Shown one piece after another: positions 9,559-45,796 of a DNA stretch of 61,443 nucleotides; positions within the stretch are counted from its first letter, which is position 1; each line of letters opens with the position of its first letter. Under the pieces are notes generated by a model that worked only from the letters and a program-made list of their open reading frames with translations, did not search any database and had not been told where the DNA came from. The stretch is from the NCBI GenBank assembly GCA_022824225.1, contig JAJEAH010000003.1, positions 1 to 61,443 on the forward strand, read 5' to 3'. The DNA is from Chloroflexota bacterium. Lineage in GTDB: Bacteria > Chloroflexota > UBA11872 > VXOZ01. A program made the translations under genes and the position numbers.

Positions 9559-11283
9559 ATGCTCGCGCCCCGCTACCGGTGGGAGGTGGCCGCTCCCGCT
9601 CCCGCGTCGCTCTATTCATCCGTTCCGGAATGCCATCGGGTGGTGGTGCAACTGCTCTACAATCGCGGCTACAGCTCCGGACAGTCTATCCAGGGCTTCT
9701 TGGCGGGCCAGGACGCCCAGGAACACGATCCGTACCTCTTGGCGGGTATGCAAGAGGCCGTAGACCGCATTCGCCGCGCCATTCGCGCCGGTGAGCGCAT
9801 CGGGGTCTTTGGCGACTACGATGCGGACGGCGTGTCTGCTGCCGTGATCATGCAGCAGGCGCTGGCGTTCCTCGGCGCAACGGTCGAGGTCCGGTTGCCG
9901 CACCGGGTCGACGACGGGTACGGTTTGACCGAGCGCGCCGTCGCGGCGCTGGCCGACCGCGGCGTCGGATTGCTCATTACGGTGGACTGCGGCATCAGCG
10001 CGGTGGGTCCCGTCGCGTTGGCGCGGAAGCAAGGTATGGACGTGATCGTCACCGACCACCACCAGCCTCCCGCGGAGTTGCCGGCGGCCCACGCCATCAT
10101 CAACCCGTGGCTGCCTGAGTGCGACTATCCCTTCCGCGAGCTCTGCGGCGCCGGGCTGGCGTACAAACTGGCGTGCGCCTTGCTATCTGCAGCGGAAGGC
10201 AACGCGGTTGACGCCACGCAAGACGAGTTGCGCGGCTTTGCCGCGATAGCCACGGTTGCCGACGTGGTGCCGCTGCTAGGCGAAAACCGCGCCATCGTCT
10301 TGGCGGGGATCGAGGCGCTGCGGCGCACTGAGCACGCCGGGTTGCGCGCTCTCATGCAGGTGGCGGGCGTGGAGGCTGCTGCCGTGGATAGCGGTGTGAT
10401 TGGGTTTGCCCTGGCGCCCCGCATCAATGCGGCCGGACGCATGGCGCATCCCGGGTTGGCATTCGACCTCCTCACGTCGCGGGACCGCATGCGCGCGCTG
10501 GCGTTGGCGGCGCAATTGCAGCAACTCAATCAAGAGCGGCAACGGGTGACCAAGCGCGCCTTGACCGCCGCCCGGCGGCAGGTGGAACGCGGCCAGCAGG
10601 ATGAATCGCTGCTCTGGGTGGAAGGCAAGAACTGGGGGGCCGGAATCATCGGTCTGGTGGCGGGCCGCCTGGCCGACGAATACGGCAGGCCGGCGCTGGC
10701 CGTGGCAGTGGATGGCACGGCGGCCGTGGGATCCGCGCGCAGTATTCCGGAGTACGACATTGCCGCCGCGCTCGCGGAGCGGGGAAGTCTCATGCAGCGT
10801 CATGGCGGGCATCGTCAAGCCGCGGGCTTTTCGCTGGAGAAGGACAAACGCGGTCAGTTGCGGGAAGCGCTGCAGGATGACGCTCGCCAGAGTCTGGACC
10901 CCACGAAAGTGCAGCCCAGGCTGCAAATCGATGGGGAAGCGCCCGCCCAGGACATGGACCTGGACTTGCTCGCCACTGTTGACGTTCTGGCGCCGTTTGG
11001 CGCCAGCAACCCGGAACCGAGCTTCGTCAGCCGAAGCCTCCCGGTCAGCGGCATACGGCCGGTGGGCACGGACCACCTGCGGACCACGTTTGCCGTGGGC
11101 CGGCGGTCTATCACGGGGATTGGCTTCCACATGGCCGACCGTGCGCCCCATTTGCGCGTGGGACAGGAACTCGATGTGGTATATTCGATGCAAGAAAATA
11201 CGTGGGGCGGGTTCTCGCGCTTGGAGTTTCGCCTGCAGGACATGCAGGTGACCGGCGCTGACGGAGAACCCGCCACGACATAA
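9559..11283 (+). CDS. recJ: Single-stranded-DNA-specific exonuclease RecJ
   Basis: RecJ degrades single-stranded DNA 5' to 3' in recombination and mismatch repair. The 574-residue product starts at ATG 9559 with AAGGA 6 nt upstream. The DHH-family metal motifs are intact: GDYDADG (D at about 86-90), VDCGIS, and TDHHQPP with DHH at 166-168. GAGLAYKLAC and the IGFALAPRINAAGR stretch follow. The DHHA1 domain shows QRHGGHRQAAGFSLE. The C-terminal OB-like part is present. relA begins 19 bp after its stop, so the two are probably one transcript. Confidence 0.95.
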   Translation: MLAPRYRWEVAAPAPASLYSSVPECHRVVVQLLYNRGYSSGQSIQGFLAGQDAQEHDPYLLAGMQEAVDRIRRAIRAGERIGVFGDYDADGVSAAVIMQQALAFLGATVEVRLPHRVDDGYGLTERAVAALADRGVGLLITVDCGISAVGPVALARKQGMDVIVTDHHQPPAELPAAHAIINPWLPECDYPFRELCGAGLAYKLACALLSAAEGNAVDATQDELRGFAAIATVADVVPLLGENRAIVLAGIEALRRTEHAGLRALMQVAGVEAAAVDSGVIGFALAPRINAAGRMAHPGLAFDLLTSRDRMRALALAAQLQQLNQERQRVTKRALTAARRQVERGQQDESLLWVEGKNWGAGIIGLVAGRLADEYGRPALAVAVDGTAAVGSARSIPEYDIAAALAERGSLMQRHGGHRQAAGFSLEKDKRGQLREALQDDARQSLDPTKVQPRLQIDGEAPAQDMDLDLLATVDVLAPFGASNPEPSFVSRSLPVSGIRPVGTDHLRTTFAVGRRSITGIGFHMADRAPHLRVGQELDVVYSMQENTWGGFSRLEFRLQDMQVTGADGEPATT

Positions 11284-15276: not shown

Positions 15277-15400
15277 CGCTTCGACGAGCTCAGCGCGAAC
15301 GGGGTGGCGCTTCGACAGGCTCAGCGCGAACGGGGTGGCGCTTCGACAAGCTCAGCGGGAACGGAGAGGCGCTTCGACAGGCTCAGCGCGAACGGGTTGA
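15277..15400 (+). repeat. Tandem repeat, 4 units of 31 bp
   Basis: Units run 15277-15307, 15308-15338, 15339-15369 and 15370-15400, each starting CGCTTCGACAGGCTCAGCGC with a few changes. The motif is the same dispersed element seen singly at about 90, 44440, 44520 and 48320. The open frame through it is an artefact of the repeat. Confidence 0.85.
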
Positions 15401-43475: not shown

Positions 43476-44315
43476 ATGATCGTTGACGTTCACTCCCACA
43501 TGTCGGACGCGAATCTGCATTTGACGGACGAATTCAAAGCCGATCTCGGTTCCTCGTGGCAGGGGCTTACCATCGACGCAACGCCAGCGATACACCAACA
43601 GGCCGTGGACGCCGTGGACGCCATCATCGTCTTCCCGCTCTACGCGCCGTACAGCGGCATCGTGGTGCCCAACGAGTACGTGGCCGACTACGTGCGCGGC
43701 GCCGGCGCAAACGTCATAGGCTTTGCGAGTGTCGACGCCAACGACGCGGACGCTCCCGATCAGCTCGAGCACGCCGCAAAGCAACTAGGCTTGCGCGGTC
43801 TCAAGATTGGCCCCATCTACCAGGGATATGATCCGCTTGGCCAGGGAGCGGCTGCCATGTTTGCCAAAGCGGAAGCCCTCGGCCTGCCCGTTATGTGGCA
43901 CCACGGCACGACCTTCGTGCGCAAGGCCCCGCTCAAGTACGCGCAGCCGTATCAGGTCGATGAGGTTGCCATCCGCTTCCCCGATCTCAAGATTATCGTG
44001 GCACACATGGGCCATCCCGGCATCGGCGAGACGGTTTCAGTCGTGCGCAAGCATCCGAACGTCTACACCGATATTAGCGGTCTCTACCCCCGCCCGTGGC
44101 AGTACTACAACGCGCTCATCACCGCCATTGAGTACGGCACCGCCGACAAGCTGCTCTTCGGTACCGACTTCCCGCTCTTCTCCGCCGCCGACACGTTGGC
44201 CGGACTGCGCAACGTCAACGCCTTGGTGGAGGGCACGGCGCTGCCGCGCGTGCCGGAAGGCGTGATCGAGGGCATCATCCACCGTGAGAGCCTGTCGCTG
44301 CTTGGCTTAGCGTAA
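43476..44315 (+). CDS. Metal-dependent amidohydrolase (TIM-barrel, PF04909)
   Basis: This gene encodes 279 residues from ATG 43476. The metal-binding H-x-H is MIVDVHSHMSD at the N-terminus. MWHHGTTFV, IIVAHMGHPGIGETV and LLFGTDFPLFSA (with the catalytic Asp) follow in the usual order for the amidohydrolase-2 family. Members act as hydrolases or decarboxylases on ring acids and lactones. No signal peptide is present. It is transcribed divergently from argS. Substrate cannot be assigned. Confidence 0.87.
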   Translation: MIVDVHSHMSDANLHLTDEFKADLGSSWQGLTIDATPAIHQQAVDAVDAIIVFPLYAPYSGIVVPNEYVADYVRGAGANVIGFASVDANDADAPDQLEHAAKQLGLRGLKIGPIYQGYDPLGQGAAAMFAKAEALGLPVMWHHGTTFVRKAPLKYAQPYQVDEVAIRFPDLKIIVAHMGHPGIGETVSVVRKHPNVYTDISGLYPRPWQYYNALITAIEYGTADKLLFGTDFPLFSAADTLAGLRNVNALVEGTALPRVPEGVIEGIIHRESLSLLGLA

Positions 44316-44560
44316 GTTCTACACCGTATGAGGCGCCCATGGCGTATCATTTGTTCCCTTGGCCGTACGCCTCCTGTTGGCAAGACTATCAAGGGAGAAG
44401 ACAGCCGGAGTTGCTGCGAGCGAATCAGCCGTTCGTGCTGAGCTTGTCGAAGCACTCTTGGCATTGCGGGCAAGTGTGTAGCTAGTACGCTTCCTTCCGC
44501 CACTTGGACTTCGACAGGCTCAGTCCGAACGGTAAAGGGAGATTTCCGAGCGGTGATACG

Positions 44561-44770
44561 GTCAGCCCCGTGCGGTGAAGGGATAGTTGGTACGTGGCCG
44601 GGCCGGAACCCGTGATCAAGGGTCAGCCCCGTGCGGTGAGGGGATAGTTTCACCGTTCCGGTCGTGGTGCAGCGGAATCGCGTCAGCCCCGTGCGGTGAG
44701 GGGATAGTTCTAATGACGTGGTGCTCCGTGCTGGACTCGAACGTCAGCCCCGAGCGGTGAAGGGATAGTT
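44561..44770 (+). CRISPR. Orphan CRISPR array, type I-E-like, 4 repeats and 3 spacers
   Basis: Four 28-bp repeats lie at 44561-44588, 44622-44649, 44682-44709 and 44743-44770. Consensus begins GTCAGCCCCGTGCGGTGAGG and ends GGATAGTT, with the CCCC...GGGG dyad of type I-E repeats. Spacers are 33, 32 and 33 bp and differ from one another. Repeat 4 has one change in the core (CGAGC for CGTGC), and repeats 1 and 4 share GAAGGGAT instead of GAGGGGAT. A degenerate half-repeat (CCGAGCGGTGA) lies just before the array. There are no cas genes in the window. By analogy with type I-E the leader should be on the left. The rest of 44316-44843 holds two copies of the TTCGACAGGCTCAG element. Confidence 0.88.
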
Positions 44771-44843
44771 TCGAACGGTGAAGTCTCACTGTTGCGGCGG
44801 TGCGACAACTTGCCTTTGTCCGCGGCTGTAAGACTCTTGCCGC

Positions 44844-45287
44844 TTACTCTTCCGGGACTTCTTCCGCATGCTCCACCGGCTCGCGTCGGAAGAAGCGCTG
44901 CGTGATCCAGTCGTTAATGCCCCAGGCGCGGATGGCCGAGTAGAGCACCCAGAGGCTGAAAACCCGTTGCAGCGTCGATTGTGAGAGTTGCTGGGCCAGC
45001 GTGGACGCCAGGAGACCGGCAGCTACCGCGCCGATAGCGATGAGGAAGACCGGCCGCAGCTTGAGGTTCTTCATGCGGTAGTGGGTAATCGCGCCGGCCA
45101 GCGTGGTGGGAATCATCACGGCCAAGGAAATGCCCTGGCCGATGTGCTGACCGTAGCCCAAGATGAGGACCGCCGCCGGCACCATGATGATGCCGCCTCC
45201 TACGCCCATGGTGCCGCTGAGCATGCCGGCGCCAAAGCCGATAACGAGACTGAAGAGAAAGACGGAGAGTTCCGGGCCGAGGTTCAT
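44844..45287 (-). CDS. TauE/SafE family protein, second half
   Basis: This gene encodes 147 residues. It is a half-size TauE/SafE permease domain with the signature GAGMLSGTMGVGGGIIMVPA, four membrane helices and a charged C-terminal tail (EPVEHAEEVPEE). Its ATG overlaps the stop of the preceding half gene by 4 nt. Full-length TauE/SafE proteins of about 260-300 residues contain two such halves, so this protein is expected to pair with its neighbour. The family exports sulfite, sulfoacetate or other anions. Confidence 0.85.
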   Translation of the reverse strand: MNLGPELSVFLFSLVIGFGAGMLSGTMGVGGGIIMVPAAVLILGYGQHIGQGISLAVMIPTTLAGAITHYRMKNLKLRPVFLIAIGAVAAGLLASTLAQQLSQSTLQRVFSLWVLYSAIRAWGINDWITQRFFRREPVEHAEEVPEE

Positions 45288-45796
45288 GCTTCACTTTCCT
45301 CATCCGCTGCCGCTTCCTCGCTATCATCCCGCTGGTAGAGGACACTCCAGATGCCCATTACGACCATTACGACGAATCCGGCAATGAGGATAGCGTTTCC
45401 CAACACGGGGTGTTGCAGGAGCATGCGCAGCCCCACGGCGGTGAGGAGGATGGCAAAGATCCGCTTGAGTTGCTTCTGATTGATGCGGTGGGAAATGCGC
45501 ACGCCGATGGGCGCGGCGATCACGGCGCTGATCATGAAACCGGCGCCGGCAATGTACGCGGGGACATCGTTGCCGGGCGGCTCGTCACGAGGCCACAGGG
45601 CGTAGACCAATGCGGACGCAATGGCTGTGGGCACGATCGCGCCCAGGCTGACCGCGTGGGCCTCGCGCTGCGCCAATGCCAGGTAGGCGGTTATCAGAGG
45701 GACGATGACGACACCGCCGCCGACACCGGCGAGACCGGATAGCGTGCCGCCGGCAACGCCAACGGCAATGAAGCGCCAAAGGGGAATGGAGTTCAT
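45284..45796 (-). CDS. TauE/SafE family protein, first half
   Basis: This gene encodes 170 residues. It contains the repeat signature GGTLSGLAGVGGGVVIVPLI at the N-terminus, four to five membrane helices and an acidic tail (SEEAAADEESEA). Start ATG 45796 has GAGG 2 nt upstream. Together with the next gene it makes up one normal TauE/SafE transporter, split at the point between the two internal repeats with coding overlap. Both are predicted to sit in the inner membrane. Confidence 0.85.
   Translation of the reverse strand: MNSIPLWRFIAVGVAGGTLSGLAGVGGGVVIVPLITAYLALAQREAHAVSLGAIVPTAIASALVYALWPRDEPPGNDVPAYIAGAGFMISAVIAAPIGVRISHRINQKQLKRIFAILLTAVGLRMLLQHPVLGNAILIAGFVVMVVMGIWSVLYQRDDSEEAAADEESEA

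What the first reader, a model, noticed from the sequence alone, without database searches (positions are those of the whole stretch)
44561..44770. Orphan CRISPR array with type I-E-like repeats and no cas genes
Four 28-bp repeats with spacers of 33, 32 and 33 bp are directly visible. The repeat has the CCCC...GGGG dyad of type I-E. No cas gene lies within the window. The array is small, flanked by dispersed repeats, and its outer repeats carry shared changes, so it may be a fossil or may be served by Cas proteins elsewhere.
Basis: partly seen in the sequence, partly recalled or inferred. Interest (0 to 1): 0.62.

Follow-up and report, generated by a model that had tools for sequence, protein, structure and literature searches.

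The report
Orphaned CRISPR array with self-derived spacer
This is a real but stranded four-repeat CRISPR array: one of its three stored "memories" is an exact 33-letter copy of the bacterium's own aminotransferase gene, and the genome has lost nearly all the CRISPR machinery needed to use it, keeping only the Cas3 gene elsewhere.

Summary
In detail: four 28-nt repeats with 33/32/33-nt spacers at 44561-44770. Nothing like the repeat occurs elsewhere in this genome, in five congeners, or as an array in the scan of about 85,000 species genomes.

Spacer 1 is a 33/33 copy of the host's own class I/II aminotransferase gene on another contig, ending flush at both repeats. That is a strong signature of Cas1-Cas2 spacer acquisition and argues against a chance repeat cluster. 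The last 24 nt of spacer 3 match the 3' end of phage tRNA genes (22/24).

The genome carries an intact cas3e, followed by four diverging type I-E repeats (plus one truncated copy) of different sequence, with a phage gene fragment among them. Cascade and cas1 are gone from that locus; cas1 and cas7e are absent from the assembly. One congener keeps a complete I-E system with the same 28+33 architecture.

Most likely the window array was built by type I-E adaptation in this lineage and is now inert. Its repeat may not be an inherited CRISPR repeat: repeat 4 plus its right flank is homologous (30/38) to sequence just left of the array, across the repeat boundary. That suggests ectopic ("neo-CRISPR") integration, which I rate at about 0.35.

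The parts
44561..44588 (+). Repeat 1 GTCAGCCCCGTGCGGTGAAGGGATAGTT
44589..44621 (+). Spacer 1 (33 nt), exact 33/33 copy of the sense strand of the genome's own class I/II aminotransferase gene (G000:C30:96834-96866, nt 755-787 of 1164)
44622..44649 (+). Repeat 2 GTCAGCCCCGTGCGGTGAGGGGATAGTT
44650..44681 (+). Spacer 2 (32 nt), no convincing protospacer found
44682..44709 (+). Repeat 3, identical to repeat 2
44710..44742 (+). Spacer 3 (33 nt); its reverse complement begins with a tRNA 3' end (T-loop, acceptor strand, CCA; 24 nt, 22/24 to phage tRNA-Arg and tRNA-Lys genes) followed by 9 nt
44743..44770 (+). Repeat 4 GTCAGCCCCGAGCGGTGAAGGGATAGTT, the copy most like the left flank
44771..44781 (+). 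Right flank still homologous to the left flank (9 of 11), beyond the repeat boundary
44520..44556 (+). Left-flank segment homologous (30/38, one gap) to repeat 4 plus right flank; possible sibling of the ancestral target site
44510..44532 (+). Dispersed REP-like element TTCGACAGGCTCAGTCCGAACGG
44429..44451 (-). Second REP-like element copy, opposite strand
43476..44315 (+). Left neighbour gene: amidohydrolase (PF04909), conserved neighbour in congeners
44844..45287 (-). Right neighbour gene: TauE/SafE family (PF01925, N-terminal half of the profile)

Best explanation
It is a genuine short CRISPR array laid down by type I-E Cas1-Cas2: 33-bp prespacers were inserted at a 28-bp site, duplicating the site each time. 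In one event the machinery took DNA from the host's own aminotransferase gene. The genome later lost Cascade and the adaptation genes and kept only cas3e and a few decaying canonical I-E repeats on contig C47. The window array can therefore no longer be processed, used for interference or extended, and the self-matching spacer is tolerated because there is no effector. Shown: the array, the self match and its flush ends, the missing genes (cas1 and cas7e genome-wide; all other Cascade genes beside cas3e), the intact cas3e and I-E remnants, the complete I-E system with the same 28+33 unit in one congener, and absence of the array in congeners. Inferred: that I-E machinery itself built this array, the order of events, and that the array is inert now.
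For: Period 61/60/61 with 28+33 units, identical to the congener's complete I-E array (28+33, 37 repeats). Spacer 1 matches an unlinked host gene 33/33 with no extension into either repeat. The two congener copies of that gene found both differ from it by 2 nt, so the spacer came from this lineage. Repeat core CCCCGTGC...GGGGATAG is shared with the congener's I-E repeat (0.1-0.2% of shuffles score as high). Own cas3e is intact (865 aa, PADLOC Cas3e E=1.3e-165, 60% identity to the congener's; HD, Walker A, DEVH, SAT and motif VI present). Directly downstream lie four mutually different I-E repeats and one truncated copy, with no Cascade, cas1 or cas2 between. cas1 and cas7e are absent genome-wide. 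The array is absent between the same two genes in four congeners. Spacer 3 resembles a phage tRNA 3' end, with no such tRNA gene in the genus within 3 mismatches.
Against: The repeat differs from the genome's own C47 I-E repeats; the only strong shared stretch is GGGGATAG. It lacks the 7-bp I-E stem. No leader is evident: the left flank is 56% G+C, and no promoter-like site was found. The spacer 1 protospacer has TGG, not the E. coli AAG motif, on its 5' side; the PAM of this genus is unknown. The assembly is 95% complete in 87 contigs, so missing genes could lie in gaps. cas2, cas5e, cas6e, cas8e and cas11 were not searched genome-wide.
Confidence: 0.75

Rival explanations
1. Neo-CRISPR: Cas1-Cas2 integrated off-target into an ordinary intergenic sequence that happened to resemble a repeat. 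The 'repeat' is then a duplicated stretch of local DNA (repeat 4 plus right flank being the ancestral site), not an inherited CRISPR repeat. This is a more specific form of the best explanation, about how the array originated.
For: Left flank 44520-44556 aligns to repeat 4 plus right flank 44744-44781 (30/38, score 42; 0 of 2000 shuffles reach it, largest 36) and the match crosses the repeat's 3' boundary by 11 nt, as expected if repeat 4 and its right flank are original DNA. The best score anywhere else in the 249 kb (both strands counted) of this genome examined is 30. Similarity to the left flank falls from R4 to R1 to R2/R3 (28, 24, 20). Repeat unique in genus and database; array absent in congeners; no leader. 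Ectopic integration under Cas1-Cas2 overexpression is reported (Nivala 2018, as cited in PMC11788318).
Against: The most I-E-like repeats are R2/R3, not R4, which fits decay of an I-E repeat equally well. Similarity of the repeat to the dispersed REP core alone is not significant. The left-flank similarity could be a later local duplication or gene conversion. The empty site was not found in any genome.
Confidence: 0.35
2. Diverged canonical orphan: the array was originally a normal I-E array (perhaps of a second, lost I-E locus) with its own repeat, and has drifted.
For: Shared CCCCGTGC and GGGGATAG with the congener's I-E repeat; R2/R3 are the most I-E-like copies; same 28+33 unit.
Against: No genome in the genus or the database holds the repeat in an array. 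The four copies are more alike than the C47 remnants are to each other, so drift is not advanced. It does not explain homology across the array boundary.
Confidence: 0.35
3. Not a CRISPR: a cluster of REP-like elements that mimics one (a 'false-CRISPR').
For: The genus has many REP elements, often in tandem clusters of period 33-69 nt, one with period 61. Short CRISPR-like elements without cas genes are a known annotation error (PMC5294841).
Against: In most REP clusters seen here the intervening sequences are related or shared between units; here they are unrelated, and one is an exact 33-nt copy of a distant gene with flush ends, which tandem duplication cannot produce.
Confidence: 0.05
4. 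Still functional: remote or unassembled Cas proteins process the array, or its RNA regulates the aminotransferase gene.
For: Intact cas3e in the genome; about 5% of the genome is missing.
Against: Cas3 without Cascade has no guide. cas1 and cas7e are absent. In the I-E orientation the spacer 1 RNA would be sense, not antisense, to the mRNA. Repeats R1 and R4 have lost hairpin pairs.
Confidence: 0.07

Closest known systems
Type I-E CRISPR array of the congener G003 (contig C60: cas3-cas8e-cas11-cas7e-cas5e-cas6e-cas1 plus 37 repeats)
   Same: 28-nt repeat with 33-nt spacers, 61-nt unit, CCCCGTGC...GGGGATAG core and orientation
   Different: That repeat is GGTTCCCCCGTGCACGCGGGGATAGACC with a 7-bp stem, 37 copies beside a full cas operon; the window repeat has different ends, no full stem, 4 copies and no cas genes beside it
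Own-genome I-E remnant on contig C47 (cas3e plus four diverging repeats and one truncated copy)
   Same: 61-nt spacing and GGGGATAG in the repeat; same genome, so possibly the former machinery
   Different: Repeat ends differ (GGTTC...GACC versus GTCAG...GTT); repeats more decayed; linked to cas3e
Neo-CRISPR loci made by off-target Cas1-Cas2 integration in E. coli (Nivala et al. 2018; paper not held, known through PMC11788318)
   Same: Array at a non-CRISPR site with a site-derived repeat and acquired spacers
   Different: Those were seen under Cas1-Cas2 overexpression; here a natural genome with three spacers and no adaptation genes left
Orphan CRISPR arrays with self-targeting spacers (for example P. 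aeruginosa PAO1, PMC11687729; review PMC6990116)
   Same: Small array without adaptation/effector operon, a self-matching spacer, a stray Cas3
   Different: Here the self match is a metabolic gene and a decayed locus of the same subtype is identifiable elsewhere in the genome
False-CRISPR elements (PMC5294841)
   Same: Short, cas-less, embedded among dispersed repeats
   Different: Spacers here are unrelated, of fixed length, and one has an identified external source

Membership tests
CRISPR array | Near-identical direct repeats separated by unrelated spacers of regular length | tested here: met
CRISPR array | Spacers copied from DNA elsewhere (protospacers) | tested here: met
   Spacer 1 33/33 to the host aminotransferase gene with flush ends; spacer 3 resembles a phage tRNA end; none for spacer 2
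CRISPR array | Leader next to the first repeat | tested here: inconclusive
   Left flank not strongly A+T-rich (56% G+C against 62.5% for the window), no promoter-like site
Type I-E array | 28/29-nt repeat plus 32/33-nt spacer, about 61-nt unit | tested here: met
Type I-E array | Palindromic repeat with the 7-bp stem of the I-E family | tested here: not met
   4 pairs in R2/R3, 3 in R1/R4, no better than shuffles
Type I-E array | Repeat related to a known I-E repeat | tested here: inconclusive
   Core shared with the congener's repeat (0.1-0.2% of shuffles), ends different
Type I-E CRISPR-Cas system | Cascade (cas8e, cas11, cas7e, cas5e, cas6e) in the genome | tested here: not met
   cas7e absent genome-wide; none of the five on contig C47 beside cas3e; the other four were not searched genome-wide
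Type I-E CRISPR-Cas system | cas1-cas2 in the genome | tested here: not met
   cas1 absent; cas2 not searched
Type I-E CRISPR-Cas system | cas3 | tested here: met
   Intact cas3e on contig C47
Neo-CRISPR (ectopic integration) | Repeat equals the pre-existing sequence of a non-CRISPR target site | tested here: inconclusive
   Homology of the left flank to R4 plus right flank across the boundary; no empty site with a single copy found
False-CRISPR / REP cluster | Units of a dispersed repeat with related or non-diverse intervening sequence | tested here: not met
   Spacers unrelated, one of external origin

The most novel reading that the evidence does not exclude
A natural neo-CRISPR locus: type I-E Cas1-Cas2 turned an ordinary intergenic sequence, next to a dispersed REP-like element, into a CRISPR repeat and grew a three-spacer array there, including a spacer from the cell's own genome, before the lineage lost its I-E machinery.
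Probability: 0.35. Interest if true: 0.62.

Novelty: new member of a known kind. Interest (0 to 1): 0.4.

Why it matters
Orphan arrays and self-targeting spacers are known, but this case ties together several pieces in one genome: a lineage-specific array with a unique repeat, an exact self-derived spacer, a decayed I-E locus that kept only cas3e, and a congener with the complete system. If the repeat is site-derived, it would be a natural example of how new CRISPR arrays (and new repeat sequences) can arise by off-target integration, something I know of only from laboratory overexpression. It also fits the idea that self-acquisition and loss of interference go together.

Tried and rejected
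Same repeat elsewhere: none in own genome, genus or viral contigs; the four genome contigs matches are single 26-nt coincidences, not arrays.

Spacer 2 protospacers: only partial 18-19-nt matches, at most 25/32 overall. Spacer 3 exact matches in viral contigs: none.

Repeat as a copy of the REP core: the similarity of R4 to the REP consensus alone is not significant; only the extended local homology is. The pattern TCAGTCCGAACGGTGAAGGGA occurs nowhere else in the genome within 3 mismatches.

Rfam: no CRISPR or other RNA family near its gathering score in the array region.

Plasmid and phage blastn with the whole array: only weak chance matches, apart from the tRNA ends.

Repeat order (which repeat is ancestral) cannot be decided by parsimony: each ancestor considered needs three changes.

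The library does not hold the Nivala 2018 paper, so its integration-site motif could not be compared.

Full report
OBSERVATION. The window holds four repeats of 28 nt at 44561-44588, 44622-44649, 44682-44709 and 44743-44770, separated by spacers of 33, 32 and 33 nt. Shuffled windows never contain the pattern. R2 and R3 are identical, R1 differs from them by one base and R4 by two. The described CCCC...GGGG dyad is present only in R2/R3; R1 and R4 keep three pairs, and none of the repeats folds better than shuffled versions. The array sits between two convergent genes, an amidohydrolase (43476-44315) and a TauE/SafE gene (44844-45287).

HOW UNIQUE IT IS. The repeat occurs only here in the genome (3.37 Mb, 87 contigs, 95.4% complete) and not in five congeners. 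A scan of about 85,000 species genomes allowing any loop of 7-9 nt found four isolated single matches, none an array. Viral contigs gave none. The amidohydrolase-TauE pair is conserved in congeners; in the four where the whole interval could be read, it holds REP-like elements but no array.

SPACERS. Spacer 1 is a 33/33 match to the sense strand of an aminotransferase gene (PF00155) on another contig of the same genome, at nt 755-787 of 1164. The match stops exactly at both repeats. Two congeners have the same stretch with 2 differences each, so the spacer was taken from this lineage, after it diverged from those congeners. A 33-nt exact match in 3.4 Mb is not expected by chance (order 1e-13, my estimate). 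Together with the fixed 28+33 unit it is what Cas1-Cas2 integration produces. Spacer 3, reverse-complemented, is GTTCGAGTCCAGCACGGAGCACCA + CGTCATTAG: the first 24 nt have the layout of a tRNA 3' end with encoded CCA and match phage tRNA-Arg and tRNA-Lys 3' ends at 22/24. No such tRNA gene occurs in the genus within 3 mismatches. The E-value is only 0.3, so a phage source is likely but not shown. Spacer 2 has no convincing source.

CAS GENES. cas1 and cas7e are absent, but an intact cas3e of 865 aa lies on contig C47. It matches PADLOC Cas3e at 1.3e-165, is 60% identical to the congener's Cas3e, and keeps the HD, Walker A, DEVH, SAT and motif VI motifs. About 150-200 bp after it come I-E repeats of the form GGTTCCCCCGCRNRCGCGGGGATAGACC at locus L057 11147-11174, 11208-11235, 11844-11871 and 11905-11932, plus a truncated copy ending at 11114. 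All four differ from one another. There is no Cascade, cas1 or cas2 between cas3e and the repeats, and no Cascade gene or cas1 elsewhere on that contig. Among the congeners only G003 has a complete I-E operon and array, with 28-nt repeats and 33-nt spacers. So the genome carries the ruin of a type I-E system.

WHERE THE REPEAT COMES FROM. The window repeat shares CCCCGTGC and GGGGATAG with G003's repeat (0.1-0.2% of shuffles score as high), but its ends differ and the 7-bp stem is gone. A second resemblance is stronger. The left flank 44520-44556 aligns to R4 plus its right flank 44744-44781 with 30 identities in 38 columns. None of 2000 shuffles reaches that score (42; largest 36), and the best score elsewhere in the 249 kb (both strands counted) of this genome examined is 30. 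The alignment runs 11 nt past the end of the repeat. That is what one expects if R4 and its right flank are original intergenic DNA, one of two tandem units, and Cas1-Cas2 integrated at this site and duplicated it. It is not proof: local duplication or gene conversion could also do it, R2/R3 rather than R4 are the most I-E-like copies, and the genus is full of REP-like elements in tandem clusters. I give a site-derived origin about 0.35, and drift from an inherited I-E repeat about the same.

WHAT IT DOES NOW. Most likely nothing. Without Cascade there is no crRNA processing or targeting, and without Cas1-Cas2 no further acquisition. Cas3 alone has no guide. In the usual I-E orientation the spacer 1 RNA would be sense to the aminotransferase mRNA, so antisense regulation is unlikely. 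The self-matching spacer is therefore tolerated; whether self-acquisition drove the loss of the system is speculation. Mutation or deletion of the CRISPR-Cas system is described as one way for hosts to avoid death by self-targeting (PMC6990116).

COMPARISON. Orphan arrays with self-spacers and a stray Cas3 have been described (PMC11687729), false-CRISPRs have been catalogued (PMC5294841), and ectopic Cas1-Cas2 integration is known in E. coli under overexpression (Nivala 2018, cited in PMC11788318; the paper itself was not available). As a CRISPR array it passes membership; as a type I-E CRISPR-Cas system it does not. Verdict: a new member of a known kind, with a minority reading (neo-CRISPR in nature) that would be more interesting.

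Noticed in passing
L057 11236-11844 (G000:C47): A 609-nt stretch lies exactly between two I-E repeats downstream of the solitary cas3e. It carries a phage gene (PF25682 Phage_VG64; relatives at 57-72% identity in IMG/VR) and the end of a preceding frame: phage DNA embedded in a decaying CRISPR array, some 18 times the normal spacer length.
   Followed up: partly
L088 (G000:C3:62500-63100), L089 (G000:C43), L090 (G003:C57), window 15280-15395: REP-like element TTCGACARGCTCAGNNCGAACGG is abundant across the genus and forms tandem clusters with periods from about 31 to 69 nt; the C3 cluster has period 61 and could be mistaken for a CRISPR.
   Followed up: partly
window 44844-45796: TauE/SafE is carried by two overlapping half-length ORFs on the minus strand; the first-transcribed one (45284-45796) matches the C-terminal half of PF01925 and the second (44844-45287) the N-terminal half, i.e. 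reversed order.
   Followed up: no
L032 (G003:C60:36000-55967): Complete type I-E operon with a 37-repeat array in one congener, no cas7e or cas3 above cut-off in the other four; patchy distribution of I-E in the genus.
   Followed up: partly
L057 12787-12950 and 17376-17667: Tandem arrays of a 27-nt unit (CCGTTCGGAATGACA...) near the cas3e locus.
   Followed up: no
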